From Bryoerythrophyllum caledonicum (Eukaryota > Streptophyta > Bryopsida > Pottiales > Pottiaceae), in NCBI GenBank assembly GCA_963971425.1, contig OZ020516.1, positions 35,638,199-35,702,198 of the forward strand: DNA of 64,000 nt. The letters are read 5' to 3'. The notes beneath the pieces were generated by a model. It saw only the letters and a list, made by a program, of their open reading frames with translations, had not been told where the DNA came from and searched no databases. Both the position numbers and the translations under genes were made by a program. How positions within the stretch are numbered: position 1 is the stretch's first letter; each line of letters opens with the position of its first letter. This document shows, one piece after another, positions 3,059 to 46,184 of this stretch.

Positions 3059-3620
3059 TCAATCCCTAAGGTTCCGTGACAGTATCACATCAAAAACACT
3101 CCAAAATTGTTGGATTCTAGTGCAATAAACAAAGAAGGAAACAAAACTTTTATTTCTAGTTTTGACCGTAGGATCTCACTTGAGACTTATTAAGTTACAT
3201 ACTCTCAAAATTTCATAAATTTTGACTGCACAGATTGAAAGATTATAGTATTTGAAGTCAAACATATGGTTCATTTTCTTCCCTGCGTTCAGTGGATCAG
3301 CAAACTTTAACTTCACTTGGTGCCAAATTTTTCCACTACACAAGGTCTAGATCCATTACCATCGTGTTAAACATGATGTTAGTTCCTTACACACCAGATT
3401 TTAGAGGTAAAGGAGGTGTGTAGCATATTCAAAACAATCGTGCAAGGAGTAGAGGTTGAAATATTGCCAATTTTCATCTTAAATTTTTGTGAATTTACAA
3501 TGTTTTAGATTGATAATGCAAATGCTCAATAAGTAGAATTACACTACACATTGTTGTGGAACAATGAAATTTTAAAAAATATGAAGATCTCTAAGTTTAG
3601 TGTGCAAGGAAGACATTTTT

Positions 3621-3651
3621 AACACGCAATTAAGCAATTATGCACTTGGCC
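3621..3651 (+). repeat. Left terminal inverted repeat of the 12.4-kb element
   Basis: It starts AACACGCAATTAAGCAATTA and ends TGCACTTGGCC. It pairs with 15953-15983 on the opposite strand with 30 of 31 positions matching. A second AAGTGCACTTGG lies just inside at about 3657-3670. Confidence 0.85.
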
Positions 3652-4190
3652 ATTTAAAAGTGCACTTGGGTACAACGGCGGCCATTGCGAACAAAAGTGG
3701 CAAAATTGAAAAAAAAAAAAAATCAATGAAAAAAAATGTTTTCCAAAGGAAAAAAAATTGAGCTTCTGCAACAATATTACGTACAATCATGGTTGTTCAT
3801 ATTGGAAGCGATTTTTTGGCATTTCCAACTAAATTGTGGTGGCCCCTCGCTAATACAAGATAAATGTGTATTTAATATAGTTTCACAATATTTCAAAGAT
3901 AGATTTGAACGATTGTAGTATATAAATAGGCGTAATTACAAAAAAACATTCTTTATGCAAGGGTTGGCAGTTGATTAAAAGATATTCTACGTAGTACATA
4001 ATGCATACAATAGTGGAAACTAAATATAGATGCTTCAACAATTGGATTTAGCACCAATAGTAAACACAGCTTCACTCTAAAGGATCAATGACATAACATC
4101 TTACATCACCCTTAGAATATACTACTTTTACACATACACTATATATCAATTACCATACACAACTAGTATACTCTCAAAAAGGCACACTAT

Positions 4191-7100
4191 CTACTCCATA
4201 GAATATAGGGCTGCTTGCAAACGGTCGTCATCGATAGCTTCGGTTTGCATTGCAATATATTGTAGGATGTGAGCCTTTGCCGATTGAAGAATGCGAATCT
4301 TGCTTTCAACCTGCACTCCAAATACATTGCGCTTTCTCCACCCGCCGCCTCCGGACATGGTTCTTTTCAGAGAGTCTACTTATGAAAAAATGCATGCATC
4401 TTTCTCTACCCAACTATGGCTCTCCCCAGATGGCTCCCAGATTGAGTCCATGCAATTTGCATACCGTTGTGCAGAAGACCCATGTCCATCAGCAACCCCC
4501 CTTTGGATGATGGGCCAATACCAACAAACCTTTATCTTAAGTCTCCATCGGTTTTTTCTTTCCTCAATCACTTTCCCCATATAGAATGGTACACTGCCTT
4601 CTATCTCTGCTCGATCAACACTCAAGGCTACAAACTGTCCACAACGGATATCAGATTGTGGATTAAATGGTGGAAATAGGTCGTGATTACCTTCATACAT
4701 TGCTCCTTCTTCAGCTTGTTCCTCAACATAGTTGCGCTCTGTTTGTTGTGCCCTACGCACAGCTTGATTAGAGGGTCTTCTTCTACGAGGACCAAAGTAT
4801 CCTCGAGCCTCGCCATTTGGAAGCATCGCCACTACCTACTCTACGACATTTACCTCGCAATTTTCTTCACTTGCACCATCCATGACATCCAAAGATGCGC
4901 TCCCTGTAGATCCGATGTTGGAGAACTCTGAAGGCCAAAACGGTGAGGAACAATGCTCATTGCTACGATCTTTGTGTGGAAATTCAGCTAAATAGAGTTT
5001 CAATATTTCAGCCTCTACTTTTGCCTCACGATTCTTGTCCTCATGTTGCAACCTTTGAATGCACCTTTGTTTATATGCAATGAAGTCATTCAACGCCTTC
5101 AACTCCCGTTCGTCCGCTGCAAATACTTCCGCAAACGATGGTCGTTCATTCCTATTTGGCAACGACCTCAAAGTTTTCGTCCCTGCCTCCGGTCCCCATG
5201 GATCCTAGCAATAATGCTTGTGTTGTACTCAAACCTCACGAGTCCCTTCTCAATTGTCCATATAGAATCGCTTATGGTGCGGAAATGTTATGCCCACCAA
5301 TGAATCCTGACATGTCAGTAAGTGAGGAGTTATGAACAATTTTCAATCCCATACATTCTCTAGCAGCCAGGCACTAACAAATGCCTCCGTAGGAGATGTT
5401 CCTCGTTCTATAAGACTAATCATTTCCTTCAACGAGTCCACGTCCGACCTCTTCAACGTTTTTGATATACAACTGAAGCGTTGATCAATATCTTCGTAGG
5501 TATGGCCCACTGTAAGAAAAGATAGTTCCATTTCCTGAAAAAACGCCAATCCCACTAATGTAGCACATAGAGCAAACATATAAATGTTTTTGTTCTCACG
5601 GGTGCAATTGTCGGCCTGAATTCGCAGTGTTGGTGGCAAAAAGCCCCTCCTCCGCAGCACATCTTCACTCACGTACAACAATGTACTCACGACTTGATTG
5701 CTATCGTGTTTGTGGTGAGCCCCAAACCACACGTCGCAATATAAACCAATCCCATGTACAAGAGCACCACACAGATGGGTCTTCACAAACCGGTGTTCAA
5801 TGTTCTTCACAGTCTGACGCATCCTCGGTACCATGGCCGTGTTTTGGTCCATGCCATCTATTATGATGCACATATACAACTCAGGGCTAATATAACAGGA
5901 CCTCTTGAATATCCAATAATGCCTACATTCTTCCATCTAGTTGCGCAGATGCAACATAAACAACTCCTTTATCTTTATCCTTGCATCCGCATTGGTGGTT
6001 CCTTCCATGGCACATTTATACTCCCAACAATGATAATACTTTGAGAATTTCAAGAATGGAGGTACCTGAACGTGGGGATACTTGATGCGCCACATCCTCC
6101 GGAACGAACTCATAGAAATGATTTCACCATTACAAATTCTCTTGTCCTCCTCGTTCACGTAATTGAATACATCAGATTTGGCTGTATTCATAGGAAGGAG
6201 CATAAGAGGCACCACTTCGTTGTCACTCTTACGGCGAATACAACAATGAGGTTGAGGACAACCAGCTTCATCAACAAACGATTTAAAGCAAGCCTCTGCT
6301 CCAGACATTCTAGTACTCTTTCTTATTGGATCTGAAAAGATATTGCCGTGAATCGATGTCACTCTTCCATATATTAGACAATCCTTCTTCAATTGCTTAA
6401 AGCGCCTCTGTGAATATCCAACCTCAAGAGCGTAGCAAGCATTGCAAACTTGTTTCCCATCTAACTTTGTTACAAACTTGTCTCGACGAGTTCCTTCCGT
6501 CCTTGTGTAAAAAGAAACTAGCATCTGTCTCATCCACGTACTTCGAACTGAAAACTCATTATCCCATGCATTATATCGCATGTCCAATAGATACCTTTCG
6601 AGAACGTCCCTCAAACAATTGCGTTTGCATCCTCCTTGTGCCATTACAAATTGTACGCTTCTAAGGGATACCTTCGATGGTGCAACTTCTGTCAATGATG
6701 GCTCCTTTGAATCTCTCCTTCTCCTATTTTGCATAGAATAGGGACGACGTGGTGGTCTCACATAAGAAAATCCATCTATATGGGGCAAATCTTGGATATT
6801 TGAGGGAGTAGGCTGGGAAAACGGCGAATTTTCATCTATGGCTTTAGAAGCTTGACTACTACATCGAGACCTCTCAGTGGATCTTGGTGTGTTGATGAAC
6901 TCAAGAAAATCAAATTCTGGGGCCATCACTTGTGTAGGCGCTATCTGTGATCCAATGTCACCATGAACACTTGTAATATCAAGTTCTACAGCCACTACTC
7001 GTAGCAAAGACCGATGCCAACGAATGATCAAGCCCACACACATGCCGAGGCGTTCTCCTACAATCTCTCCGGTCCAATGCAATGCATCATCTATCCTAGT

Positions 7101-7421
7101 GATACGCACTGCCACCTCAAATGGAAAGAACTTCGACCGATTCAATTCCATGCCACTTTTGAATGCATGCTTCCTGGTTGCTAAGCCCACCACACCTCTT
7201 TTCTCAGAAAGCAATTCCACTGCCCTCTCCAATTCAGATGTTCTGATTCCAACAGATCTCTGTTGAATTTGCCTTGCACGTGCTGCTCGTACTAATCGAG
7301 CCCCCACAAAGCTATTGGAGTGCATATTATCCCTTTGGATGTGTGGCCGTATCGAAGGAGTTTGAATCGTGCAGTTGTCCATTATCAGTATTGAAAAAAT
7401 AGGAACATTATGGCTACACAT
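4191..7421 (-). pseudogene. DUF7869-type putative DDE transposase, eroded
   Basis: One reading frame runs from the ATG at 7421 to the stop at 4191 (1,076 codons) with no frameshift but about seven in-frame stops. The N-terminal 260 residues are variable. A Cys-containing segment (CKRNC, about residue 265; CNAC, about 326) is followed by an RNase-H-like block with the candidate acidic residues IIDGMDQ (about 522), QADNCTRENKN (about 604) and GHTYEDIDQRF (about 640). A C-terminal segment 'GQFVALSVDR...PFYMGKVIE' resembles a BAH-like fold. From memory this order of blocks is that of proteins carrying DUF7869. Catalysis of transposition is inferred from the D-D-E/D-like spacing and from the enclosing inverted repeats. 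The stops (TAG, TGA and TAA) are of kinds that arise from CAG, CGA/TGG and CAA by C-to-T or G-to-A change, as expected of a methylated, silenced copy. Confidence 0.7.
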
Positions 7422-7600
7422 TAGTCAAAATACATGTACTAATTGTTAACCTTCAAAGCACCATTCATTTTATAAAAGATATATTTCTAAATACATATTC
7501 ACTGATCAAAATATGATGATGATATTAGACCTTTTGATAAAAAAACTTTGAAATGAAAAAATTAAGAATTTGTAGAGCATGAACTCCTTGCACAGAGTCA

Positions 7601-8552
7601 TTAACCCTGAAGGTACAATGACAGTCTTACACCAAAAACACTTCAAAATTGTTGGATTCTAGTGCAATGAACAATAATGGAAACAAAAAAATTTATTTCT
7701 AATTTTGACCGTAGGATCTCAATTAAGGCTTATTAAGTAATATATAAACAAAATTTCATAAACTTTGACCGCATGGATTGAAAGATTATAGTGTTTGAAG
7801 TCAAGCATATGGTTCATTTTCTTCCCTGAGTGCAGTGGATCAGCAGACTTTGACTTCACTTGCTGTCAAATTTTTGCACTACACAACGTCTAAATCCATA
7901 ACCATCTTGTTAAGCTTCATGTTAGTTCTTTGTACACCAATTTTTAGAGGTAGAGAATGGGTGTAGCATATTCAAAAACAACTGTGCAAGGAGGGGAAGT
8001 TTGGAATTTCTTAAATCACACTATAATTTTTTGTGAACTTAATATGTTTTAGATTGGTAATCCAAATGGTCATAAGAAGGTTTACACCACATATTGTTGT
8101 GGATAAAATAAAAAGTGAAAAATAAAAAAAAATCTAGGTTTTATTTGGAAAACAAAAAGTTTTTTTGGTACCTTGTCCAACACTGACTGACAATGAGTGA
8201 AAATGTTTGACTTGGGTTGATATGCTATTTTTCACTAATGACAAGAACTTATTTTGACAACATCAAGGGAAATAGTATTAGTTGCAAGTACCGAAAATCT
8301 CACATTCAACATAGTGTCATAGCAAAAGTTTTTGAACGTGCCCAACTTGCCCGCTCTCTCCATTTGAAATTCAAAACCCTTCAACTTTTTGATCAAATGT
8401 CCAATTTAGGTAAAAACTATTTTCCCACTGAAGTCTTGATAATGCCTTTCTATGGTAAAATTTTCAAAGAGAAATGTTGGAAATTGACACCATAGGAACA
8501 TGATTGAACTTTCAAAAAGCCCATTTTTGACACTTGATCCTTTAGGGGTTAA
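7601..8552. mobile_element. TTAA-type miniature transposon (944 bp), nested
   Basis: TTAA flanks both sides (7601-7604 and 8549-8552). The ends are CCCTGAAGGTAC... on the left and, read from the outside, CCCCTAAAGGATCAAG on the right, giving a short imperfect inverted repeat. No coding sequence. It is the uninterrupted relative of the copy split at 3059-16375 and lies upstream of the DUF7869 gene's start. The TTAA duplication and CCCT termini resemble piggyBac-type ends; no piggyBac transposase is present in the window. Confidence 0.75.
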
Positions 8553-9839
8553 ATATGTTACACCTCTTCTGCATCCCTAAACATTGGTGTAAAATGGAAC
8601 TTATATCATTTCTAACATGATGATAATGAATCTAGATCATGTGTGATGCAATCTTTTGAATCCAAGTGAACTGAAATGAAGGGATTCCACTGAATCTAGG
8701 GAAAAAAATGAACCATGTTGTCTACTTGCTATTACTGACACTATTGGAACTTGTTACAATTGCTAATAAATGAAAGGGTTTATACATCCACATAAAGGTT
8801 ATTCTATAAATTACATAGTATAGAAGATCAATCAACAATCAATCTTAAACTTGTATAAAAATAAATGTTTACCTGAAGATACGTTGCAGGTGTTAGCGGT
8901 ACACGCACTAATGCTTGATGGCGTTCAACATTAAATCACCATTCTGTCGTTGATGTTGAACATGTTTTCCAACCCTTCCCACTGTACCTGCAACACATGC
9001 ATAAAATTTATATGGTAAACTGTGTGATAAAAAGTCCCAAGTATCTTTGTATTACATGTAGGCTATAGCCAATTTTTTTAATATAATATGTAAAAAGCTT
9101 AAACAAAAGGAGAAACAAAGCAAAAGGTCCAAAGTTCCAAAGTCAAACTTTGACTAGTAAACTTGGAGCACAAGGTTCCAACAAGGATATAAGGTTTCTA
9201 TGCAAATCTAGAGGTCTCTTCCCTTCTCAATTTGTAAGGTGAGCTCTCTTGCAATCGAAACCTCAAGGCCATGTGCATTTTTACTTCATTCACTAATTTC
9301 TGTCAACTTGTGTGTACTGTGTAGATTGGAGGAAATTTGAACATTGAGAAGTCTCTTGCAAATTTGGTAAGCTTCTGACATTGTTTCAATTCTGAATATC
9401 AGGGAACTCCAGTGTTAGATTCATGATGATTAAAGATTAGTCAGAGATACAATAGTGTAAGGTGAGCAAAACCAAGAGTTGAGCACCCAAATGAAAACAT
9501 CCACTTCAGTATGTTCAAAGATTACAAATTCAATAGAAGTAAGATGTTTACAACTAGTGAGTCAACTAGTGACATCAAAGAGTGACACCAAAACCCACTG
9601 AGAACTTCAATAATGAGAGTAGCCCGTAGTATTGTACTAAAACCATGGTATGGCACATCAGCCCACTACCTCAAACCCTAGCCACCGCAACCAAACCCTA
9701 GCCGCCACAACCAAACCCTAGCCGCCGCAACTGGAAACCCAAACCCTAAAAATCAGACCCATGGAGTTCGCGTGACGCCTCATGAGGTGTGCTCGCGTAC
9801 ACCCCCACAAGCTGGTGCTCCTCCATCCATCCGATAACT
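8553..9839. other. Non-coding centre of the 12.4-kb element, left of the gap
   Basis: This is AT-rich DNA without a supported gene. At 9670-9760 the motif AAACCCTAGCCGCC(A/G)CAACC is repeated about four times, a GC-richer island with the plant telo-box AAACCCTA. It continues up to the assembly gap and could be the promoter or 5' leader of one of the two divergent genes. Confidence 0.4.
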
Positions 9840-10039
9840 NNNNNNNNNNNNNNNNNNNNNNNNNNNNNNNNNNNNNNNNNNNNNNNNNNNNNNNNNNNNN
9901 NNNNNNNNNNNNNNNNNNNNNNNNNNNNNNNNNNNNNNNNNNNNNNNNNNNNNNNNNNNNNNNNNNNNNNNNNNNNNNNNNNNNNNNNNNNNNNNNNNNN
10001 NNNNNNNNNNNNNNNNNNNNNNNNNNNNNNNNNNNNNNN
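9840..10039. other. Assembly gap (200 N)
   Basis: Exactly 200 undetermined bases. Open frames that cross it are artefacts. It lies in the GC-richer, repeated part of the 12.4-kb element, so sequence may be missing or collapsed here. Confidence 0.99.
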
Positions 10040-10269
10040 CACAACTATGGCAAGGGTGTGCGCGCGCACACCCGTCCTTGGACTACCCAAGGATTGATAT
10101 CTGTAGTTGACACCCTCTTAACAAAAACCCTAATTCTCAAACCCTAATTGATACCCTGAACAATTACCTATGTTGATAACCGGATGTTGGTACCCATGAA
10201 ATCATACCCTGGTTGTGATACCTTCGCTATTGATACTCAAAGTACCATAGTCCATAAATGGTGTAGAGA

Positions 10270-11370
10270 ATATCTCAACCAAAACTCGTAAAAAATGCTT
10301 GTTTTAGTGCAATTAGCTTGCATGAAAAAATGAGGTTTTTTTTGTAGTTTGAACCGTAGGATCTCAATAAAGACTTATAAAATAATGTACTCACAAAATT
10401 TCATAAAGTTTGACCGCATAGATTGAAAGATTATAATGTTTGAAGTTGAGAAAAGGCTCATTTTCATCCCTGCGTTTTATGGATCAGCAGACTTTGACTT
10501 CAATTGGTGTCCAATTTTTGCATTTTAAAGGGTCTCAATTAATTACCATAATGTTAAGCATGATGTAAGTTTGCTATATACCAATTTTTAGAGGTAGACA
10601 AGGAGCGTAGCATATTCAAAAAAATTGTGCAATGAGTGGAGGTTCAAAAATTCTCAATTCACGTTACATTTTTTGGGGAACTCGATATTGTTTTAATTGA
10701 GAATCCAAATGGTCAATAAGAAGTTTTACGTCACATAATGCTGTAGGAAAAATAAAAAGTGAATCATACTAAGATCTCAAAGTTTTATGTGGGAAGGTAG
10801 TGGATTTTTTTGGTACGTTGGCCGAAAATGTGTGACAATGTGTGAAAATAATTGATTTGGATTGGCGTGCTATTTCACCAAAGAACTAACAACATGCTTC
10901 ACACGATGCTATTGGATTTTGATCTTGTGTAGTGCAAAAGTTTTTAGAGGTAGAAAGGAGTGTAGCATATTTTTAAAAATTGTGCAATGAATGGAGGTTC
11001 AAAAATTCTCAATTCACGTTTTTTTCTTTTGGGGAACTTGATGTTGTTTGAAATGAGATGCCAAATGGTCAATAAGAAGGTTTACATGACATAATGCCGT
11101 AGGAAAAATCAAAAGTGAATCATACAAAGATCTCAAAGTTTTATGTGGACAGGTAGAAGATTTTTTGGTACCTTAGCAGAAAATTTGTGACAATGTGTGA
11201 AAATAATTGACTTTGATTGATATGCTATTTCACCAAAGAACTAACAACATGCTTAACATGATGGTATTGGATTTAGATCTTGTGTAGTGCAAAAGTTTTT
11301 AGAGGTAGACAAGGGGTGTAGCATATTCAAAAATATTGTGGAATGAGTTGAGGTTCAAAAATTCTTATTC
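10270..11370. repeat. Eroded TTAA-miniature relative with 356-bp tandem duplication
   Basis: From about 10,340 the sequence follows the interior of the miniatures at 3063 and 7605: GAACCGTAGGATCTC, then TTTGACCGCATAGATTGAAA, then GGATCAGCAGACTTTGACTT. The GTAGCATATT...GAGTGGAGGTTCAAAAATTC block recurs at 10607, 10962 and 11318, so a unit of about 355-356 bp is present twice plus a third partial copy. Neither TTAA-bounded end is preserved. It lies just upstream of the plus-strand gene starting at 11428. Confidence 0.65.
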
Positions 11371-11427
11371 CATACTAATAGTGACTACCGGTTATTAATG
11401 ATATACAGGTTTTTTGAGTGTTGCGTT

Positions 11428-14400
11428 ATGGCACCACCAAATATTGATAGAATCTGGGAGAGCCACGGCTGGTGGATCGCAGAAGTGGATGAGTCGAGCG
11501 CCTTCTTGTGAGTGACGGATTATCCCTTTGAGTTGGGGAAGTGTACATCGGCGTTGGAGAAGAGTTTTGGCAAAATCCATGCAATCACTCTTCGAGGTGA
11601 TGATATGGTATATGTTACTTGCGTAGTGGGTCCAGGTCAATCGGAGTTGAAGACTTCTCTTTCGAAGAAGTTGCTTCTTGTACCTGTCCCTTTGAACCTT
11701 CTTCAAAATCGAGGTCAAGTGAAATTCCTCAAATCATTGCAGACGTTTTCGTTAAACATCTCTCTTGCAGTACGTACTGCTAGACACAATAACGTCTTAG
11801 TCTGTTTAGCGTTATCACCGGAGATGGTGTTGAAAGCTAAGAAGAATATGGAGGAATATATAAGATATGAAGCATTTCGGGAGAGGGACCCATCACGTGC
11901 GACAACTCAAGCCCCACCAGCGGAACCAGAAGAAACAAAAGTTTATCAAATTCTTGCTGAGCCGTTACAACTGGATTGGCAACCACTAGAAGGGGCCAGG
12001 GAAAGTGGAGGCCAACATCCTACCACAACTTCTGAGGTACAAATATTACCTAATCCTCCATCAACGAATAGACGTCCTACGAAGAGGCCACGTCGTATTG
12101 AGAGTGATGCAGCTTCTGGTTCAAGAGAAGGCCCATCAAGTTTGGATCCAAGCAGGAGGAGGTTGATTGGAAGAAGTGTAAGGTCCGGTGGCAGAGTTCC
12201 TAGATCGAGGCTCAGGACGTTTGATGGTCATGTAGGGCCCCTACATCTACATCGGGAGATTTTGCTGATGTGTCAGCCATGGCGCCGGAGGAAGAAGAAT
12301 TTCACAACCTATCAGACAGTGTACAAGAGGATTTTGAAGACAATGCGGAGATACCACAGGATGTTCCAACTTCTATGTATTTAAAAGCACCAATGCCTAC
12401 AACAAAGGAGATTGCAAAATGATTAGTGTGGGGGAATTTTGTGTTTAAGGCGCACATAGACCGCATTGTCTCTGTGGAGAATCCAGAAACCAACCACCGG
12501 GTTTTATCACAGAAGGGGGTCAGAGAAGTATTTAATCGCTTAAGAGACCCAGAATCCGCGACTCGAGTGAGTAGATTGGTACTTCGACCGATCAGATACA
12601 TCGTGCATACTACCACTGATGATGGTGTCGTTGAGAAGGAGGAGCTGCCATTTCCGTTGGTAGGAACTGCACGAGAATATGAGCGCATGTTCATTGCACA
12701 CGAGAGTGCTTCAGCATAGGGTGCTATGGGATCCCAGTATTCTTGGCTTCAAGATCATATCATTTGGAAACCGGTGGATGGGCAACACATAGTACCAGTT
12801 TGTAAGTTTGCACAGCAGCAGTGGAGAGATGGTACTATGCCTTTAAATAAGTACCTGGACACGTTTGAGTGGCGGGAGGCCTCTTTTGTGGTGTATGATG
12901 ATCGCCGGTTCTACATTGAGAAGTCTGCGCGAATCAACGTGGCGGAGTTCCAAAGACATTCATATTCTACCATGGAGGAGGATTTGAGGAAGATCCGTCA
13001 GATTTGGGATCTATACGGGAGGCCTGATAGCACACTACGTGCGGACGATGCATGTAGGGTTGTTGCTTTAGTGAGTGCGGCAAGTGCAGTGCATAAGTTG
13101 TCCAAGGGGGATGGAGTTCTCACGATGAAGAGGTTGGCCAAAAACATGGAGGATCTGACCAATCATGCATGGAATCCGAGCAATGACTGCCTCGAAGCTA
13201 TCATTCAAGTATGCAAGGACTACGAAGACGGCATTCTCTTTTACAGCAAGGAGGAAGAGGACAAGTGGAAGGACATGGCGAGGAAGAAAGAGCTGGATCC
13301 AAATGTGGACGTACAACCAACAAGAAAGGAGATGACCCAGAATTGGTTGAGGCCGTTAGGTAGAGTTCCGAATTCATATTATCTTCAGTTGGCAAAGTCT
13401 GCTGCAGCGAAGCCGGTGACGGAGGATGGAGTAAGACCTCGTCAAGCATATTACTTCGACGGTGTAAAAGACAAGAATCCTCATACGATTGCCGGTGTTT
13501 GTGACCGATATCAGAGACGAGAAGTTGCGATCAATTCCATCCGTTGGTTGATGGTGGAGAACAAGGAAAATACACGTGATTCTATGGAGGAGTTCTTTCG
13601 TATCCGTGTAGGGAAGTATTTTCCAAGGAGTAACGCACAACTTGATACCTTTGAAAAGCTTTTGAATGCTACCACGAAAAAAACTTGGACTACTCCTATG
13701 CGGGGGAAGGTGTCTAAACTGGAAGACATAGGCTACCTCATCCCCCCTTCCATCAGGTTTCATTATGGTGACATTGCAGCACGGGGGCGTGGATACATTG
13801 GACTGTCCATGGATGTTGGAGGACATGCTACAACTAATTGGGAATGGCAGATGGAAGTCAAGAGGCCAGGCTAGAGCGACACAGAGAATCTTCTTCCGAT
13901 TCGGTGTAGAAGAGGGTTATTCCGCACCGACTACATAGAGTTGGGGAAACCATGTTTGTGGGTGATTGATTGCCGACGTGGCGGTGGGAGGCATGGAGAT
14001 GGTCATTAGGGAGACGCCTAGTTATCCGCAGCTTTTGCACAGCTGACATTGTGGATGGCAAATATTGAACGATGGAACGTCATCTTCTTGTTACTAGCGG
14101 CTGTGTATGTGAACGAGGAGTTTTTCTCAAAGGTGAAGCTTTGAGAGGGATGTACTATGCAACGTGGATGTTGGGCATTTGATCCGTACTCGGTTAATCC
14201 CTATGCTCTCGATTTTACAGAGAATGGGCATCTAGAGCAAGTAGTACAACCGATTGACGATGTTGTGATTTGTATGCAACACCCTGTAGGTACATCTCCT
14301 GGCCCGAACTATGTTTCTAGAGACGTTCCACTTCCTCTTGTTTTCTTGGATCACTGGCGTGAGGCACGCCAACCCTCTGAAGTTGATTCACTTGAGAGAT

Positions 14401-15384
14401 CTCCATCAGAGCTGGCAAGACTAGTGGGCTCATACTTGCCCTGTGGTTGGGGTTTAGTGGCGTGTAACATATCTACGGCCATTCCCATGATCCTTGAAGG
14501 AGATTTCCAGGGATCTGAGGTTTTCATCATTGACGATTGTACAGACAGAGTTTCATTTCGGTCAATGAGTTGTCCGACAATTTCCAAGGACAACTGTTGG
14601 TCAGGACTGGTGGAACAAGTACCGGTTGCAATATCGTACCTGAGACTGAAGAGACGGTTGGTGGAGTGAGGAATGAAGACGACAATGAGGATGGAGGTGG
14701 TTTACATGAGAGATTGCCACATTTAGGTACCACTAAAAATTTCTCATCTCGGAGTAGTTCAGACGCCGATGAAGATGGAGTGAACCAATCTCCTCTAAGA
14801 GAGAGGATTCCATCAATGCAGCGGGCACTGGGAGATACTTCAAGGGAGACGTCTGCAACACCTACAGAGAGGATGCAAGATACCGGTGTAGTGGATGTTG
14901 GTTTGGCGGCAGGGGCAGGAGGGGGGCATACATTTGATGGTCCTAGGCTGGAGATAGAGGAAGAAGAATTGGATTCATTGGAATTTTTTTCGGTGCAGAG
15001 GAGGATTCCACAGCCTTCGATGCCTTCTCAATCAGAGCCTGTATCGGAGACACAAGAGACGTTTGGAGGTACTTAGAGTGATACCGGACCCGGTTTGCCT
15101 TCCGTTCCAAGATCTAGCGTATCTGAGGACATCATTGCATTTCAGGGGGCCTTCTCGTTACAGCGAGAGATGTCCTTCAATCCAGAGGACGGTTTTTTCT
15201 ACAATGATGATAGGGTAAGGCATACGCGGGAGGGTGTTCCTGGCAATTACCGATATGTTGAGTGTGCGTCCATTGGCATCGAAGATGTGGGAGATCGTCC
15301 AGTGCAGGATCATGAACTGTCCGCTATGGTAGGTAGCGCCATTGGACACGTGGAGGGAGTCGTTGCGCCAGAAGATGAGCTCTG
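11428..15384 (+). pseudogene. Second gene of the 12.4-kb element, function unknown
   Basis: I do not recognise this protein. The first ATG (11428, 'MAPPNIDRIW') opens a frame interrupted after 27 codons; coding-like sequence then continues to 15384 across three phases (changes near 12230 and 14550) with several stops, and it is most eroded at 13875-14157. The best-preserved piece is 12726-13874 (382 aa): Trp/Arg/Glu-rich, with 'YDDRRFYIEKSARINVAEF' near its start and 'NAWDNE'-like spacing absent, so it is not another copy of the transposase. An acidic, Ser/Pro-rich region follows at 14600-15384. The gene is GC-richer than its surroundings. It is divergent from the DUF7869 gene and enclosed by the same inverted repeats, so an accessory role in mobility is possible, as in two-gene transposons of other superfamilies. 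GTGAGT at 11508-11513 could be a splice donor instead of part of the first interruption. Confidence 0.5.
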
Positions 15385-15952
15385 AGCCCTGGAGCTATAT
15401 ACTATAGTAGAGCATGCACGTAGTTTAGGTGGCAAATACGTTAGTATAATGCAGTTTGAGATGTGTCTATCGTTCGGTGGATGGTATATATTTATATATT
15501 GGGTGGTCCATATGATATGTTTGATTTTAGAATTCCTCAGCAATAGTGTGGAATTGCTTGATTATGTCTGTTTTTGCATTATAAAATACAGTGAGATACT
15601 TTACACTGTCTTAGAAAATTGCATATATATTTTTGTATCTCTTACACATTGTATTTGTAGTGCACTACTCTAAAATCCTATAATAACTCATAACAAATTT
15701 ATAATCTCTTTGGGCACATGATTATAATTTTGTAGCAGGATTTGTAAACTAGATTAGAAATCATATATTTTCTAAAAAAAAGTAGCAAATGTAAAAAATA
15801 TATTACTGATATGAACATGAAGATGCCTAGGTATGACACGACAAACACCAAAAAAATTTGACAGAAAACATACTAAACTTTTGCCAAATTTTGATTTAAA
15901 AAAAAGTTATGAGCAAATAACTTGCGGCTTTCTACCAGCAACCAGTGCACTT
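15385..15952. other. 3' flank of the unknown gene
   Basis: AT-rich DNA between the end of the plus-strand gene and the right inverted repeat. No further gene or RNA feature is seen. Confidence 0.5.
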
Positions 15953-15983
15953 GGCTAAGTGCATAATTGCTTAATTGCGTGTT
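15953..15983 (-). repeat. Right terminal inverted repeat of the 12.4-kb element
   Basis: On the plus strand it runs GGCTAAGTGCATAATTGCTT and then AATTGCGTGTT, the reverse complement of the left repeat at 3621-3651. CAGTGCACTTG lies just inside it, at about 15943-15953. Confidence 0.85.
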
Positions 15984-16618
15984 ATTTTGGTACCTTGCCC
16001 GACAATGTGTGACAATGTTTGAAAATGTTTGACTTGGGTTAATATGCTATTTTTCACTAAAGACAAGAACTTCTTTTTGACAATTTGAAGGGAAGAAATG
16101 TGACTAGCTAGTATTGAGAATCTCACATTCAATAGAGTGTCTTAGCAAAAGTTTTTGGATGCGCCCGAAGTGCCCGCTCTCCCCATTTCAAATTCAAAAC
16201 CCTATAATTTTTTCATTGAATGGCGGATTTAGGAAAAAAATCTTCTCCCATTTAGGTCTTAGTAATGTCCTTCTACAATAAAAGTTTCAAAGTGGAATGT
16301 TGGAAATTGACACCATAGGATTGTGACCAAACTTTCAAAAAGCCCATTTTTGACACTTGGTCCTTTACGGGTCAAGGATCAATTAGACTCCTCTACCAAA
16401 ATAGGTGGCCACTCGAAGGGTGTTGCACTTCAATTCTACCCTCTAAATAGGGCCCTATATCTTGTTCTTTAAATCTTTCGTGATTTCATGTCATCGTCTA
16501 CATGAGAAAGATTCACGAGTAGCACGTGGTGTGTTCTGCAATGCACAAATTCTTACACATGTTTGCATGCTGCAGCTGAGCTTTGGGATTTGGAAGTTTT
16601 GATGTTTCTATTTTTTGG

Positions 16619-30277: not shown

Positions 30278-33200
30278 TTAGAGGTTAGTAGGGTGGTTAA
30301 ACCTAGAGACTAAACTAAGATAATTCGGGAGAGAATGCCAGAGAGGCTTCATGTCCACCCAAGAGGCAAGAATGTCGTTGCAGCACCAAAGCTCTTTGAA
30401 ACGCTTCGAGAACTTCCTACTCTTCTCAAGGGCTTGAGTACATCTAGACAAAGCCCTGGACCACGCCGCGCGCCCGTAGTCCACAAGGCTCAGCCAAACC
30501 TTGGTCCTGAGCTTCGTCTCGTTCCACTTAATCTCATTAAAGGCAGCGTCGTTTCTTTCGCTCCATAAGTGCCACAAGATGATGCCTCTCAGAAGGAGCC
30601 ACAACCTGCAAACAGGGGTGAATCTCCTAGATATCCTATGGTCAAAGATTCCATGTTTCCACGTCAAACTGAACCCTTGGGTCGTCTCAAGCACCCCCGT
30701 AGTGGCAGCAGTGCTTTCGTCGAGATTCAGGTCCTCCGCCCTACTGGAGCAGCCTGAGTCCTTGCAAGGAGACGGGGGAGCTTCCTGGACGGTAATAGCC
30801 TGTAGGTTGCTTTTCCTTCTAGGCACCCCCTTCCGTCGCCACCACCTCCGACTTCTCATGATATCCGAACTGTGCATGAACCTCTGCGAGTTCTGCTTGA
30901 CAGCATGCCGCGGAAGCAACCTCGTAAGCAGACTAGCATCCCACGTCCTGGTCTCCTTGGCTAATTTGCATTCCCAGAACCTGTAGAGGACCATTTTCGA
31001 AGCTCTCGTCTCACACACAGGGCAATTCTGATCGATGGAAGCCTGAATCTTCCCTCTCCAGACATTCACAGCTGCAGCCTTGTGCCAAATGGCCCAAATC
31101 AACCCCACTTCCTTCTACGCCCTCTCCGAATCCCAAATGCTGGGCCATTTGAGTTTATAAGACGCCGGGAGGATCCCGCTCCATTTAGTTTCAACCACAG
31201 AGGGAACATGAATTCTGCTTCGCAAGAGAATACGTCTGAGTTTGGCGGAGAAGTCCATAAACAGGTATTCACCATCCCATCTGTAGCGATCAGGATCCCA
31301 TGAAAGCATATCGCATCTCCCGTAGAAAAGGTGCAGGGTCAATTTCTTGGTATTTCTGATCACCTTCGACACTCTAACACGACGAAGCAGGCCAAAGTGC
31401 GAGGAAGTCCAGTCTTCCGCCTGTGTGCTCCAACTCGGAGACTTGGTAGCCATCGCGAGGCAATCCGGCCAGTTAATGGCTTGCAAGCAGTGGGAGGTGG
31501 ATCTCACAAGGTAGACATCCTTGCTGGTTGGGATCTCCAGTCTTTGCCAACCAAGCTCAGCGTGGAGTCTCTCCCCAGCTTGGAGCACCATTCTCGGGGT
31601 CAGGGCTTCTTCTCCATCGAATAGGCCGAACCACTCTCCAGGCATAATCCTCGAGTAGTTAGTGTTAAGGATTCTATGCCAAGAGCACTCCAGTCGAAGA
31701 GTAAGGTCGTGCTAGACCCTTCTTTCGGTAGCCGCAAGATTGTAAGTGGCCTGAATCTCGTCAAAGGTAGCAAATCGCACGCCGTTCGAGCCGTCCTTGA
31801 CGATCCGTAAACCATTCCTATGGAGCTCCAGAGCCCTCGCTCGGGAGAACCCCGGGCCGATGGTCTGCGTCGCCGGACAGAGCCAAAGGCTGCAGCGCAA
31901 AAGGTCTTCGAGGATAGATGGTGGGTTGAATTTCAGGTTCGGGAGCATGATCTTCCACGCTATGGTTACTCTATTCCAGACATTGGAGCCCCTCTTAGCA
32001 TGGTGTTTGAGGAGTGTGAAGAACTCCATGTTGGCTTCCATCTTCCTTTGGGGAAGGGTTGGTACGACGCAAGTCGAAACCTAAGGATGTGGTGGAGGTT
32101 TTAGTCCCCTGGTTCCAATGCCTTTACCACCCATTTTGTCATCAGAGCTATTGAAGCATCGACAATATTTATCAGGTTTGGTCCTCCTTGAGCCTTAGTC
32201 TGACAACACTGGATCCAACTGACGGGGGTGCGGGAACGCCTCGCCGTGCCCGAGGCCAAGTAATTCATGATCAATCCCTTAACCCACGCAATACCTTTTT
32301 TCGTGCCACCTCATATTGATAGGAAGAATAGAGGTGTTGATAAGAGGACACTATTAACGATCACGCTGCGCCCGAAGGGGTTAAGTTTCGTAGAGCTCCA
32401 GTATACTAGCTTCTTGGAAATTTGTTCATACAGAAAGTTGTCCACTGAACTTGTGTCCAGCGTCATACCAAATGGAGAACCGAGAAGCTTACTAATGTCA
32501 TCGAGCCCCGCCCAGGTAATACTAAGCCGATCAGCCCATGGCGGTCTACCAGTGCCTCTCCAGTCTTGCCAATAGCCGCATGATTTGTTACAGTTAATGA
32601 CCAGACCTGTTGCGAGGCAAAATTTGTCTAACAATTCGATCAAGAAACTCACCGGTTCTTCCTTCGCGAGCAGAGTAAATGAGGTGTCATCACCGTACTG
32701 CGCCAAAATCTGTTGCCTTTTGGAGGAGGGGAGTTTGATGCCCTCCACTCTTCCTCTGAGCATTTCAGTTTTAACCATGGAGTTCAATGCCTCTGCCACG
32801 ATGATGAAGAGGTATGGGGCGAGAGGGCAGCCTAGGCGAACTTCCCTTTCAATACTAAATGCCAATCCTGGTTTTCCGTTTAGTTTGACCGCCGAAGTGG
32901 CGTCTAAGAGCATGATCCTGATCATTTGAATGAATGATTCTGGGAAGCCCAGCGTGCTCATGATCTTGTACAGACATTCCCAATCCACCATGTCGTAGGC
33001 TTTGGTGAAGTCAAGCTTAAGAAACACAAGAGGTCGACTAGACTGTTCTGCCCATGCCATAGTTTCGTGCGTGAGCAATAAGTTGTCAAGAATGTAGCAA
33101 AGAGGAAGAAATGCAGATTGATTTGGGTTGATGATTTCCATCAAGATCGGTTGCAACCGTTTCTCTAGAGCCTTGGCAAAAATCTTGTACGTGGTGTTCA

Positions 33201-34848
33201 ACAGGAAAATTGGTCTCCAATTGGTTAAAGACCGTCGTTCCCCTCCCTTGTGTAGTAGCGCGAGTAGACCGTGCGTCATGCCGTTCGGAAGTTTGCCAGC
33301 AATAACACTAGAGTGAATCATGCTGGTGAAGTCTGGGCCGATGAGGTCCCAATAGGCTGTGAAGAACTTGACACCCACGCCGTCCGGGCCTAGGGACTTC
33401 CCCGGTCCCATCTCGCACAACGCCGCTTTCAGTTCATCCACGATGATAGATGCGCTAAGCGCACTTTTCATTTGTTCGTCTAGCCTGTCACTGAGGTAAC
33501 CCAGCATTGTATATATCGCCCCCTCTGATGCCGCGGCTGGAGTGCGCGCCTTATACAGGCCTTGATAAAAGTGGTGGCACACCTTCTCTAGGCCGACGCT
33601 GGACGACTCCACCTGTCCTTCCTCGTTTATTAACTCTGAAATGATTGAAGCTGACGAGCGGACTTTGTGAGAGTTAAAAAATTCGCGGGAGCACTTATCT
33701 CCTACTTCTAGCCACTTAAGGCGACTTCTTAATCGCGCTCCTACCACCTTTTTCATGTCCAGAGCTTGGAGCCGGGCAGAAAGCTCATCTAATTGTGATT
33801 GTGCGGCTTGACTGCCCGGGTCGCTTTGTAGCTGCGTGTGTGCAATCTCCATCTTATTCCTTGCCCAGATCTCCTCCCTCAAGTTTTCTTCCGTTTTTTC
33901 CACACAGAATATCTTGAAGAAACGAACCACTCTTCTGAGTTTTCCAGAGAAGGGCAGGTGTGCATACCTCCTCCACATTTGGTGTATACCAAATTGTGCC
34001 TCCGGATGCTTCAACAGAGAAGCATTCATTACGTATACTGGCTTGCGTTGACGAGCGGGTTCTAGTTGTATCTCTCTCAGTACAGGGAGATGATCCGATA
34101 GCGCCGTGTTGCCTAGAATCTTGTACGTGTCTTTGTTAGCATGTGGCCTCGCCTCCAGGAAAGAGAAGGTTCGATCGAGTCTCGCTAGTATTCTTTGTCC
34201 ATCGCGCCTCCTACTGTCCCAAGAGAAACAAATGCGACTCCTCTCCGGGAATGTGTCTTCTACAGCAAGGACGCCTTTTAATTCCTGAAAAAGTTGTTTC
34301 TCCTCAATGGATCTATATGACTCGCACAAATTAGAATTATCTTCCTTTCTTTCTACAAAGTTCCAGTCCCCTGTTAATATCCATCTCCAATCTCGCGGCA
34401 GTGACTCTCCATAAGACGCAACGTAGCACGTCTCTCCATAAGACGCAACGTTCTGCTGAGGCGTGAAGGCAATAGACATTAAGAATGGCAATATCACCCC
34501 CCGGAGGTCCTTTAAGTCTTACCGATTGTGCGCTACCTCCTGTGCCTATCATTGGCTGCAGATCATATGTGAGATCTTGGGTGACACCCACATCCCTATC
34601 CCGCCACTCCCAACTCCTTCTTCGTTGCCGTCATTGTTGTAAGCCACCGAGGCTTCCTGGCCTGTGAAATAAGCTCCTAGCCAAAATAGACTAGCTAGCC
34701 CTTGATACTTGTTACCTCTTAACTTAGTTTTCTGGAGGCAGATTATATCTAGTTTCCCTAGCATCCTAGAGTAATAGTTTTTGATAGAGTCCCTTTTCGT
34801 TCCTTCATTCATGCCTCGAACGTTGTGTATCACAATGGATAATTTCAT
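30278..34848 (-). pseudogene. LINE ORF2: endonuclease, reverse transcriptase, zf-RVT
   Basis: The AP endonuclease starts at 34848 ('HNVRGMNEGTKRD', DIICLQKTKL). Later motifs are GDWNFVE (about 34370) and SDHLPV (about 34095). The reverse transcriptase lies in the 728-aa frame 34497-32311, with LGPDGVGVKFF, LKLDFTKAYD and the catalytic box AQYGDDTSF (about 32690; YGDD where plant L1s more often have YADD). The zf-RVT-like Cys region is at about 31020 (CPVCE), followed by 'RLWLLLRGIILWHLWSERND'. Frame changes occur near 34560, near 34500 and several times between 32311 and 31108, so the gene is dead. A short tandem duplication of about 27 bp (CTCCATAAGACGCAACGT twice, 34405-34455) lies in the endonuclease region. 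Confidence 0.85.
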
Positions 34849-36471
34849 GGACGGGGGGAGGGGGAGCGAATGTGGTATGCAAACCTTTGGTGGTATTAAA
34901 CATTGGGCTGAACCTGACTGCCTTGTACAATTGTGCTTGTAGTAGGTTCGCCGGGTGATCTCGGCTTGGCTGAACCGAGGTCCACGTCTTGCTTGGAAAG
35001 TTCAGTTCCACCTCTTCGTCCCATCCTTGGTCATGCAGCCATTGTCTGTACACAGAGCTTAGAATGGCGGGGGCCGGAGCTCGATTTTTCTTGTTTGGGC
35101 CGCCTAAGAACTCCGTTATTTCTTGAATGTATGTCGGGCCGAGGCTGAGTTCATCGGATTCCTTCCATGTCTGTCTCGATTTTTCCTCCTCTCTCCATTC
35201 AGGATGTTGTGTTCCCTCATTGGTGGATTGTGCATGTGCTCTTGCCTGTAACATGTCCACGTCGAAATTTTCATTATTTCTTGGGAGACCAGCTTCTTCT
35301 GTTGGAGAAGAGAAGAATCTTGCGATAGTGTGGGCCGCTGCCTCTGCCCTCGTATTGCTTGGAGCCGAGACACGTAGGCCGGAGTTAGCTGAGGAGGCCG
35401 TCGTGTGGTCCTCCAACTGCAAGGCATATGAACCGCCGCCTGCTTGTATGCCCTGAGTTTGGTCGTGTGTTCCTATGTTCATCGCCCCCGCAAAAGTTCC
35501 AATCTTCAGTCTGCTTCCTTTGCCGTTCCTCTTCTTCCCTACCCCCGCGGCCGACATATGCACGTCCAGGCTCCTCCGGAGCTCTCGGACTTGAAGGCTC
35601 TCCATATATCTGGAGATCGTCATGTCTTGGACTTGCCTCGAGTCTGCTGGACCTGTTGTGTCTGAGGCGTTTGTGACTCCCTGAGCCGGCGCCTCTCCTA
35701 ACTGTGGAGGTAGCAGTCTGGGATGTGGAGGCGGCATATGCTCCTGAGTTGGCTGGTGATCAGGTACCTCTGACACCGACTGTGCTTTCTCCGACGATGT
35801 TGGTTCTCTGTTGCTCGTCGATGTGCTTAGCTCGGTACTCAGAGACCGGGCCCTTTGTTGCGCATTTTCTTGATTCCTCTCACGTGTAGTTGGGGACACT
35901 TTGTTTCTTTGGTGTCTCGGGCCCCGTTTGACGTGCGAGTTTTGTAGCGCTCGGCAGTCTCTTATTAGGTGCGATGTGGACAAGCAATGTCTGCATCGTA
36001 TTGGGAGATTGTTGTAGTCCACTGCTAGTGACACCATCTCTCCTAGTATTAGATTCATGACGTTGATGTTCATGACGAAAGGTTTGGTCGTGTCAATGTT
36101 GACACAGAACTTCTGATCTGCAGAGTGTCGATTGCCTCTGTGTTTGCCCACTACCCGTCCGATGCACCTGGCAATGTCATGGATGTTATTGCGTATCTTG
36201 TCTCGGACTGCCTTGAGGGTGATCCATACCGGCATCTGTGCTTTGACCGGAGCGTTGGGATCAAAATCGGCCACCCATGGTTGCAATATACATGTATCCA
36301 ATTGCGAGGTGTGGGGGGTCAGCATGAGTAACTGTTGGGTAGCACAGACGTCTTTGGTGACGATCTGGAAGAAACCGTTGCCTAGGTTGCGTCCATGTGA
36401 GCTCTCTGCTTGGGCGTCTCTTGAAAGAGTCTCTACCCACGCTGGGAGGAGGGCAAGAAATTGATGGGATC
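34805..36471 (-). CDS. LINE ORF1 (nucleic-acid-binding, zinc knuckle)
   Basis: The frame is open from just after a stop at about 36472 to 34805. The first in-frame ATG giving a long product is at 36325 (506 aa), but the conserved DUF4283-like region ('GNGFFQIVTKDV') starts upstream of it, near 36385, so the true start is upstream or has been lost. A CX2CX4HX4C knuckle is present (CRHCLSTSHLIRDC, about 35930-35971). The C-terminal 300 residues are Ser/Thr/Gln/Pro-rich. This is the RNA-binding partner of ORF2 in L1-type elements. ORF1 and ORF2 overlap slightly near 34805-34848. Confidence 0.75.
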
Positions 36472-37341: not shown

Positions 37342-39116
37342 AGTGAGGGCTCAGAAGCGCCACAATGTTAGTTAGTGATTAGTTAGTGGAAAACTGTCTT
37401 GTTTATTTCAATTAGTAGTTAGATTAGTAGTTAGTAGCGCCTTCTAGTGTGTTATTAGTAAAGGTTAGTTAACTGGACTCCACGTAGCCTTAAATTAGTG
37501 TGGAGGGCAAAATTAGAGTTATTAATAGGAAGTTAGACTTGCGAAAAGCAAAAGAGACATAGAAACCCATTAGTGAATTAGAATTAGTATGTTGTTCTAG
37601 GTAATTCAAGTTAGTAGTTTAGTATTTAATTCAGTTAGTGGAAAAGTTATATTAGAACCTCAATTGTATGGTACTTATGTTATTGTGAAAAGAGAAAAAA
37701 TAGAAGATAAGAAAAAGAAAAAAGAAAAAAACTAGTAGCAAGTAGATTTAACGATTAAAGTAAACTACTTGGTTTCTAATGATCTAGAACTCGGATTTGG
37801 ACTTGTGAATAATCAATCTTGGGATTAAAGTGTGTTTTGAACACATTGGTGGTGTTAGTTTTGCTCAAATCCTATTAGTTTGGTAGATATAGGCATGTTC
37901 AGCCCTAAAATCGAGTTTAGGGCTTTGGTGATCGTGGGCCCTTGATCTTGATTAGGGATTGTTAGATTCAAGGGTAGGGATGTGGCCGCCACCCTTGGGC
38001 CTCCTCCCACTTGGATAAGAGGCGTGGGTGGCCACTCTCCCTCTCTCTTTTTTTGCCTTGGGCGAAGCTATGCCAAAACTTCTTCTATTTTCCCTCTTAT
38101 TTTTTAGGCTGCGGTTAATCTTGTTTAGCTAAATGGATACTTAGAGTTAGGACTTGATATTTTAGCAGTAGTTAGATCTTATTGTTAGCTTTCGAGAGGT
38201 ACTAAGCACGCTCCATTTGGAGCAGTGACAAAGGAGTTATAGGATAATTTGTAGAAAGAGGTCTGCTGCCTTGGCAGAATTAGAGCATCAACTTTGGAGG
38301 GCCATTGCCGGCGGACCACGACGACTTTGGAGTCTATTTTTTCAGGAAATGTAGCCCTTGAAGTTGGCTCTTTGTGGACATCCAGCACGCTCAAATCCGA
38401 GCACAGAGGACTGAGTTACAGCGGTTTTGGTGTCCGGGGTGCTGCTGCTAGCTTGATTCGGTTCACCAACTTTGACGGACCTCTGCGAGCGAACGACAAC
38501 GATTCTGGAGCTGAAAATTGGCACGCTTGTAGATCTTCAAGTCAGGATTCTAGGGACTCTAAGCTCGCTTACATCCGATCAGCGACGACAAAGTTATAGG
38601 GATTCTAGCGACAAGGGGTGTGCTGCCTTGATCGGAGCACGTTTTTTCATGCATTTTTATTCTCCTTGAATGTTCATCGTGTATTTTTGACTTCTTACTT
38701 CTACCCTTGAGTTTCATTGTTTATTTATTTACTTCCATATCAAGTTACTTATACTTTACCTTGTATGGTTAAAGTCTTTAACCTTAACCTCATCTAATGA
38801 AATTCATCCATTAGGTTTTAGGGATCATCCATTAGGTTTTAGGGTTTCATCCATTAGGTTTTAGGGATCATCCATTAGGTTTTAGGGTTTCATCCATTAG
38901 GTTTTAGGGATCATCCATTAGGTTTTAGGGTTTCATCCATTAGGTTTTAGGGATCATCCATTAGGTTTTAGGGTTTCATCCATTAGGTTTTAGGGTTTCA
39001 TCCATTAGGTGTTAGGATTTCATCCATTAGGTTTTAGGGTTCCATCCATTAGGTTTAGGGTTTCATCCATGCAATTTAGGTTGGATGAAATTAGATAGGG
39101 TTAATTTTGGTTCACA
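37342..39116 (+). repeat. Left LTR
   Basis: It matches 47011-48785 over its whole 1775 bp by eye and ends TTCACA. It holds a purine-rich stretch (about 37690-37730) and a minisatellite near its 3' end. Short open frames inside it occur in both LTRs and are not genes. Confidence 0.9.
38803..39070 (+). repeat. Telomere-like minisatellite in the left LTR
   Basis: About twelve units of 19-22 bp, consensus CATCCATTAGGTTTTAGGG plus AT or TTT, alternate between a GGGATC and a GGGTTTC form. Each unit contains TTTAGGG or a near variant, the plant telomere heptamer. The same array recurs at 48472-48739 in the right LTR. Confidence 0.85.
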
Positions 39117-39119
39117 TAA

Positions 39120-39139
39120 TGGTGCGTCTGCCGGGAGTG
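39120..39139 (+). other. Primer-binding site of the LTR element
   Basis: TGGTGCGTCTGCCGGGAGTG lies just inside the left LTR. It complements a tRNA 3' end in CAGACGCACCA. From memory this fits a plant tRNA-Gly acceptor stem, but I could not check. Confidence 0.6.
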
Positions 39140-39751
39140 TAACTCTATAGGCTTTAGGATTGCTTGGAAGGTGATTTGTCTATCTTGTAGAACATTGACG
39201 TGTGGCTCACATATAGGTGACGTACAGGTGCATGTTGGGGTCGTGTTGGAAGGAGCACTGCCCAGGTTTTATTCCTAACTAACTTTTGTTAGAATAGAAA
39301 CCCTTGTGATCGAATAGGCCGGTGGTATACTAACTGCGCAGGAAGCTGGATTGCGGAAGGTACATCTTAACCTTGAATGGATATATGTGAACAATTTAGG
39401 TCAGTCTGATAGGTTGCTTGTAGTAGGTAATGCCAAGAGTGGGCTGAACTGAGAACAAGGAGTCCTGGCCGCCGAGGCAGGGCGTAGTGTCTCGCCCATT
39501 ACTTGGTCAGCCCTACACAACGTGACAGTCTCGTATGCCCAATCCAGATGAGACCTTTGGGGTTTGCCAAGCCGGAGCTTGTCATCAAGGTGTAGTCTGG
39601 ATTGGGTGGCTTGCGTTCCCTACCTGTTTGAGGGTAGGCTAAGGTCTTAGTTGTCAAAAAACAAAATAAAAATAAAATATAATTAAGAAAAAATAATTAA
39701 AAGTTAAAAGGAAGTGTAGTTAAAAAGTGCACGTGGATGTGAGGCCGTTAG

Positions 39752-45843: not shown

Positions 45844-46184
45844 TGATGTAGAAGTCTAATCTAGGAGTTTCCGCGTTCTAGAAGGTCAGTTAAAGTCTAC
45901 CTACCTTGGCATCATACATTATTAGTTGAGCCAATTATAGGATGCCAATCCTAGCTCAACCATGTCCATCCACGATGGCCTTATCTTTTAGGATAAATAT
46001 CCACGACTGGTGTCAGGGAAAAATCACAATGGCACTGTGGTTGTAAATTTAGAAGTATAAACTTAGTATAAGTTGGTGCAAGAGCGATGGCTTCTCATCC
46101 TTACCACTTCCTCCACACCTCTCATCTTATCCTCTCTTATTTTCTCTCTACTCATTCTTAGTTCTAAGCGTAGCTTCTGTCGAT

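What the first reader, a model, noticed from the sequence alone, without database searches (positions are those of the whole stretch)
3621..15983. Possibly undescribed two-gene transposon with a DUF7869-type transposase and 31-bp TIRs
The sequence shows a 12.36-kb segment bounded by AACACGCAATTAAGCAATTA-type inverted repeats (30 of 31 match), inserted in a miniature element. It holds two divergent genes: one with DUF7869-like blocks, including D, DN...ENKN and GHTxEDID motifs that look like an RNase-H-fold nuclease, and one unknown. DUF7869 proteins are widespread but, to my knowledge, functionally uncharacterised; linking one to clean terminal repeats and an insertion site would make it a transposase.
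Basis: partly seen in the sequence, partly recalled or inferred. Interest (0 to 1): 0.88.

Follow-up and report, generated by a model that had tools for sequence, protein, structure and literature searches.

The report
Two-gene jumping DNA, probably Sola type
This is a worn-out copy of a cut-and-paste jumping gene whose unnamed protein domain (DUF7869) is most likely its transposase, and relatives in a probable fern carry beside it a DNA-methylating enzyme gene and an evenly spaced array of mirror-image DNA sites.

Summary
Window 3620-15984 is bounded by 33-bp inverted repeats (32 of 33) and holds two divergent, broken genes, one with DUF7869. Removing the element rejoins a repeat that aligns through the junction to its paralogue, so it is a clean insertion. 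The duplication length there is undetermined: TTTT flanks both ends, but paralogues fit better with 0-2 bases removed.

DUF7869 as transposase is well supported. Of eight DUF7869 loci from a probably Azolla-derived contaminant bin, three have inverted repeats at both ends, starting AACA like the window's. One sits in a gypsy pol gene, whose frame returns on removal of element plus AACA (4 bp; 5-6 possible); the other two show no clear duplication. Three aspartates are nearly invariant. No fold could be predicted.

"Undescribed" is probably wrong: the DDD triad, 4-bp duplication, opposite-strand methyltransferase gene and SOLA-rich Azolla point to Sola, probably Sola1. No Sola sequence was available to prove it.

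New here: DUF7869 tied to terminal repeats; and, in seven of eight fern loci, a palindrome array (39 units, 23 of 32 spacings 50-52 bp) confined to the region between transposase and methyltransferase genes, a candidate target of that enzyme. The window's second gene shows no detectable relation to the methyltransferase.

The parts
3620..3652 (+). left terminal inverted repeat, 33 bp
   Evidence: 32 of 33 complementary to 15952-15984
15952..15984 (-). right terminal inverted repeat, 33 bp
3616..3619 (.). TTTT next to the left end, possible 4-bp target duplication
   Evidence: equal to 15985-15988; length not settled, paralogues fit better with 0-2 bases removed
15985..15988 (.). TTTT next to the right end, possible 4-bp target duplication
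   Evidence: poly-T site
4197..7382 (-). broken DUF7869 transposase gene, 1062 codons in one frame, 7 in-frame stops
   Evidence: (78% to P0001), (PF25273 in 5343-5936)
5343..5936 (-). DUF7869 domain with D, DN..RENKN and GHT.EDID blocks
   Evidence: PF25273 E 5.7e-44; conserved acids in relatives
4383..4835 (-). C-terminal region of the transposase that may resemble a BAH domain
   Evidence: relatives' profiles: ORC1 BAH in PDB, E 0.018 and 0.047: weak
11428..15385 (+). second gene (gene B), broken, three frames; start and end read from the sequence, aligned part 11437-15370 with 8 stops; relatives of up to 1488 aa
   Evidence: no convincing family match
7605..8552 (+). nested copy of the host repeat, between the two genes
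   Evidence: 80.8% to the rejoined host repeat
10271..11363 (+). further nested copy of the host repeat with a 355-bp tandem repeat
9786..10073 (.). two palindromes (9786-9803, 7 of 9 pairs; 10054-10073, 10 of 10) sharing GGTGTG..CACACC arms, either side of a 200-N gap; possible counterpart of the fern palindrome array
   Evidence: suggestive only, the second is one of 24 palindromes listed in the whole window and the first is not in that list
3064..3615 (+). left part of the interrupted host repeat
15989..16374 (+). right part of the interrupted host repeat

Best explanation
The segment is a decayed copy of an autonomous cut-and-paste transposon, most likely of the Sola type (probably Sola1). 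The DUF7869 protein is the transposase: it recognises the AACACG-type ends, cuts the element out and inserts it with a short (probably 4-bp) target duplication, using three aspartates (D509, D591, D633 of P0001) of an RNase-H-like core. The divergent partner gene is an accessory. In the related fern elements it has an N4/N6-type DNA methyltransferase domain, and I infer that it acts on the palindrome array between the two genes. Shown: ends, clean insertion, one case of a 4-bp (4-6) duplication, divergent gene order, conserved triad, methyltransferase domain in fern copies, place of the array. Inferred: catalysis, fold, end recognition, role of the accessory, Sola membership.
For: Inverted repeats beyond chance. 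Rejoined site aligns through the junction. DUF7869 in the window; 89 of 95 listed relatives carry PF25273 in the precomputed column. Twelve DUF7869 loci in genome contigs; in 7 of L001-L008 (not L005) the shared block ends at a related terminal sequence, and L001, L003, L008 hold both ends. L003: right flank encodes a gypsy integrase, and removing element plus AACA restores one frame, DGLLFHN-NLLYVPDG. D509 in 60 of 60, D591 in 58 of 61, D633 in 56 of 57 rows with a residue there. Fern partner gene: PF01555 above its cut-off in the exon read straight from L003, L001 and L008 (E 8.3e-8, 1.1e-7, 5.8e-7), CcrM E 4e-6. Sola: 4-bp TSD and DDD transposase, methyltransferase accessory in Sola1-1_Ec32, Azolla richer in SOLA than Salvinia.
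Against: Of four copies with both ends, only L003 shows a clear duplication, and it can be read as 4, 5 or 6 bp. L008 shows none and L001 only TTAA with ends moved by two bases. In the window TTTT flanks both ends, but alignment scores to the three paralogues are best with 0, 1 and 2 bases removed and lower with 4. No other copy from the window's own genome: the genome search did not complete. No Sola sequence to compare. Rows P0082, P0085 and P0089 have no residue at D509; P0020, P0026 and P0031 have N at D591 and P0014 N at D633. The left flank ORF of L003 matched no Pfam family.
Confidence: 0.74

Rival explanations
1. A DUF7869 transposon superfamily separate from Sola: same kind of mechanism, but not a member of any named group.
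For: No paper in the held library names DUF7869 or PF25273 (0 papers each). Repbase was not available. The 4-bp duplication is clear in one copy only.
Against: DDD, a 4-bp duplication, an opposite-strand methyltransferase and the abundance of SOLA in Azolla coincide with what is in print for Sola.
Confidence: 0.2
2. The DUF7869 gene is a passenger between the repeats; the true transposase is gene B or acts in trans.
For: Both genes are broken; gene B is large and conserved too.
Against: DUF7869 lies between related AACA ends in the fern loci beside a different partner gene, and it carries the conserved triad.
Confidence: 0.06
3. A KDZ-type or CACTA-like giant transposon.
For: Large size, accessory gene.
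Against: No such Pfam domain in either gene or its relatives scanned; KDZ duplications are longer (recalled).
Confidence: 0.02

Closest known systems
Sola superfamily, Sola1 group (for example Physcomitrella Sola1; Sola1-1_Ec32 of Ectocarpus)
   Same: DDD transposase by conservation, 4-bp duplication in one clear case, inverted repeats, large size, opposite-strand accessory with an N4/N6 DNA methyltransferase domain (fern elements)
   Different: No sequence comparison was possible. In the window element the partner gene is not detectably a methyltransferase. A palindrome array is not mentioned in the passages of PMC12477816 that I saw.
Pfam PF25273 (DUF7869)
   Same: The window gene and relatives match it far above the cut-off
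   Different: Pfam gives no function; here it is tied to terminal repeats, an insertion site and an acidic triad
ParB-methyltransferase transposon accessories of algae (cited in PMC12477816 to Iyer 2011 and Petroll 2025, neither held)
   Same: Fern gene: PF01555 methyltransferase, on the strand opposite to the transposase
   Different: The ParB-like label for its N-terminal part is from a recalled motif; Pfam gave no ParB hit. Host probably a land plant.

Membership tests
Sola superfamily | 4-bp target site duplication | tested here: inconclusive
   L003 AACA, also readable as 5-6 bp; window TTTT on both sides but paralogues prefer 0-2; L001 only with shifted ends; L008 none
Sola superfamily | DDD transposase | tested here: met
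   Conservation only: D509 60/60, D591 58/61, D633 56/57 of rows with a residue; activity and fold not tested
Sola superfamily | sequence homology to a Sola transposase | not testable with these tools
   No Sola sequence at hand; the papers looked up by DOI as Bao 2009 and as a recalled DDE survey were not held
Sola superfamily | terminal inverted repeats (11-1124 bp reported) | tested here: met
   33 bp in the window, 34 bp in L008; range from PMC10741241
Sola1 with ParB-methyltransferase accessory | N4/N6 methyltransferase gene opposite the transposase | tested here: met
   Fern loci: exons in 5 of 8 loci (the other 3 contigs start upstream of the DUF7869 gene), PF01555 above cut-off in 3 of 3 exon-4 stretches scanned
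Sola1 with ParB-methyltransferase accessory | same accessory in the window element | tested here: not met
   No Pfam match; profile comparison with the fern gene P 0.56; block scan not above shuffles; no sub-region stands out; tblastn nothing
Pfam DUF7869 | score above gathering cut-off 26 bits | tested here: met
   150.4 bits
RNase-H-fold transposase | clustered acidic triad in the fold | not testable with these tools
   Structure prediction switched off; PDB profile search gave nothing relevant

The most novel reading that the evidence does not exclude
These transposons carry their own epigenetic control module: a DNA-binding plus N4/N6-methyltransferase protein that binds and methylates a phased array of palindromes placed between the two divergent genes, much as ParB proteins bind arrays of palindromic sites on plasmids, thereby marking, silencing or counting the element's copies. 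In the window's lineage the partner has diverged past recognition (possibly a dead methyltransferase kept as a binding protein) and its own palindromes flank the assembly gap.
Probability: 0.35. Interest if true: 0.85.

Novelty: new variant of a known kind. Interest (0 to 1): 0.57.

Why it matters
It gives a likely function to DUF7869, a Pfam domain of unknown function found here in a liverwort, sea urchins, mussels, a lancelet and a coral besides metagenomes, and named in none of the 5.39 million papers searched. Genes now annotated as 'DUF7869 domain-containing' would then be transposon genes or their remains. The palindrome array next to a methyltransferase gene offers a directly testable site of N4 or N6 DNA methylation in a transposon of a probable fern.

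Tried and rejected
Homology of the window's gene B to the fern methyltransferase: I thought I saw matching motifs (DGQH, ERSPLELSRLVDSYLP), but hhalign, a profile block scan against 60 column shuffles (best scores 20.4, 14.8, 10.9 against shuffled maxima 27.3, 23.4, 16.0), tblastn both ways and Pfam give no support; it is kept only as a guess. Viral contigs: scans with the DUF7869 alignment, the gene B alignment, the window TIR and the fern protein found no relative (4 of 8 scans used). Plasmids with gene B: no match. L009-L012 hold DUF7869 fragments; the inverted-repeat lists (the 5 longest each) show no convincing terminal pair around them. BAH-like C-terminus: weak, E 0.018 and 0.047. A 4-bp duplication in the window copy: my first reading said that lengths match the paralogues; on re-checking they fit better with 0-2 bases removed, so I withdrew that claim and lowered the main confidence from 0.80 to 0.74 and raised the rival from 0.17 to 0.20. 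KDZ and CACTA considered and set aside.

Open: no copy from the window's own genome, because the genome search (19 identical requests) did not complete.
Full report
What is in the window. The inverted repeats at 3620-3652 and 15952-15984 match at 32 of 33 positions, and no other copy of the first 30 bases exists in the 64 kb within 3 mismatches, with none expected by chance. The element is 12,365 bp. It interrupts a non-coding repeat of about 1 kb. With the element and one TTTT removed, the joined flanks align through the junction to another copy of that repeat at 7605-8552 with 80.8% identity over 951 columns and 11 gap positions. So the insertion is clean. The length of the duplication is not settled: TTTT lies on both sides of the ends, but the site is a run of T, and alignment scores to the three paralogues are best with 0, 1 and 2 bases removed and lower with 4. 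Two further copies of the same repeat sit inside the element between its genes.

Genes. The left gene reads from 7382 to 4197 on the minus strand. A full-length 1063-aa metagenome protein, P0001, aligns to it over 1062 residues at 78% in a single frame; the window copy has 7 in-frame stops. Its core matches PF25273 (DUF7869) with E 5.7e-44. The right gene runs from about 11428 to 15385 on the plus strand; P0096 (1327 aa) aligns in three segments, in three frames, at 54-66%, with 8 stops over the segments. Twelve proteins of its family were found (7, 5 more). No family match beyond chance was seen in Pfam (3 members scanned; window ORFs), PADLOC or NCBIfam (7 members; best E 0.28). The copy cannot make either protein as it stands.

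Relatives. The protein search listed 95 relatives of the DUF7869 gene, 89 of them with PF25273 precomputed: metagenome proteins, sea urchins, Mytilus, a lancelet, a coral and the liverwort Riccia sorocarpa. A scan of genome contigs gave 12 loci. Eight (L001-L008) come from one bin named 'uncultured Trichormus'. L003 has a flanking gypsy integrase and the genes of these loci are split by what look like introns, so I take them for eukaryotic contamination; because Trichormus azollae is the cyanobacterial partner of the fern Azolla (recalled; the name was checked), I infer that they come from Azolla. Pairwise DNA identity of the shared blocks is about 71-84%, so they are several families. Four have DUF7869 open frames of 873-898 codons, stop to stop. 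The host of the window itself was not identified.

Ends in the relatives. In seven of the eight loci the shared block stops at a related terminal sequence, ACGCAATRTTACC...CGTGTT in the best copies; none was found in L005. L001, L003 and L008 hold both ends, giving elements of 7805, 7724 and 6044 bp. All six of these ends begin AACA and five of six AACAC, as does the window's end after its first T; beyond that they differ from the window's repeat. L003 sits inside a gypsy pol gene: taking out the element and AACA leaves one open frame over 360 codons with the junction DGLLFHNNLLYVPDG, whereas taking out the element alone leaves a stop. Removing 1 or 7 extra bases also keeps the frame, but of 1 to 8 bases only 1 and 4 are repeated on both sides. 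With the ends placed differently the duplication reads as 5 or 6 bp. L008 shows no duplication and L001 only TTAA with shifted ends. These two may be chimeric or rearranged; I cannot tell.

The transposase. In a 63-row alignment three aspartates stand out: D509 in 60 of 60, D591 in 58 of 61 and D633 in 56 of 57 rows with a residue; P0082, P0085 and P0089 have no residue at D509, and four rows have N at D591 or D633. D512, E485, E596, H478, H543, H627 and H629 are also 90% or more conserved. In a 14-row alignment of the core, which I chose from 56 segments for diversity and which leaves out the deviating rows just named, these three are the only acids invariant in every row. The order strand-D, strand-DN, helix after GHT with D fits an RNase-H-like core by eye; this is inference. 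The C-terminal part resembles a BAH domain only weakly (ORC1, E 0.018 and 0.047).

The partner gene in the fern elements. On the opposite strand, diverging from the transposase gene, L001, L002, L003, L006 and L008 carry exons of one gene. The exon read straight from L003, L001 and L008 matches N6_N4_Mtase (PF01555) above its cut-off (E 8.3e-8, 1.1e-7, 5.8e-7); a typed, joined version gave E 1.6e-15 and a profile of three joined copies matched CcrM with E 4e-6. ADIPYG and DLFSGTG motifs are present. An N-terminal stretch (GGSHSAEARRQL) looks ParB-like to me from memory; Pfam did not confirm it. The window's partner gene occupies the same place, but four kinds of test found no relation (tblastn; hhalign; Pfam; block scan).

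The palindrome array. Between the two genes of the fern elements lie repeated palindromes. Using the core CGATRC-n-GYATCG, a pattern that I wrote after seeing them, there are 39 units in L001-L008, all between the genes or, in L004, L005 and L007, whose contigs start there, upstream of the DUF7869 gene; none lies elsewhere in these loci, and 20 dinucleotide shuffles of each locus gave none. Seven of eight loci have them (3, 15, 4, 2, 3, 10, 2); L008 has none. Of 32 spacings 23 are 50-52 bp: all of L004, L005 and L006, 10 of 14 in L002 and 1 of 3 in L003; L001 (42, 40) and L007 (84) differ. Arms differ between families but stay palindromic. The window has two palindromes with shared arms, 9786-9803 (7 of 9 pairs) and 10054-10073 (10 of 10), on either side of a 200-N gap between its genes; the second is one of 24 that the scan listed in the whole window, so this is only suggestive.

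Comparison with what is known. PMC10741241 (passages seen) describes Sola transposons as encoding a DDD transposase with 4-bp duplications and inverted repeats of 11-1124 bp, present in Physcomitrella. PMC9033089 (passages) lists Physcomitrella Sola1. PMC3627910 (passages) gives 4-bp duplications for Sola2. [quoted passage not shown] Together these make Sola, probably Sola1, the likely home. That DUF7869 or PF25273 is not in print rests (0 papers each), in a library that lacks most subscription papers; Repbase may well hold this transposase under the Sola name. The original Sola paper, Iyer 2011 and Petroll 2025 were not held.

Verdict. It is more likely a member of Sola than an undescribed kind. 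The palindrome array beside the methyltransferase gene in the fern relatives is the most interesting lead.

Noticed in passing
L002:2526-3291, L006:2555-3037, L003:4522-4709 and L001, L004, L005, L007: Palindrome arrays (core CGATRC-n-GYATCG, 23 of 32 spacings 50-52 bp) between the two divergent genes; 39 units, none elsewhere in L001-L008 by that pattern.
   Followed up: partly
window 38803-48739: Likely LTR retrotransposon: tandem arrays with the same consensus unit, length and scores occur at 38803-39070 and 48472-48739, around a 1549-codon open frame at 41194-45840 plus.
   Followed up: no
window 30281-36469 minus: Several long open frames that look like parts of a LINE-type retrotransposon (by eye).
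   Followed up: no
window 9840-10039: A 200-N assembly gap lies between the two genes, flanked by palindromes that share GGTGTG..CACACC arms.
   Followed up: partly
L002:6023-7580: Tandem duplication of the right part of the element (6023-6787 and 6808-7580, 91% identical).
   Followed up: no
L001-L008: A public genome bin named 'uncultured Trichormus' (ERR2144891) holds contigs that look eukaryotic (split genes, a gypsy integrase in L003), so it is probably contaminated.
   Followed up: partly
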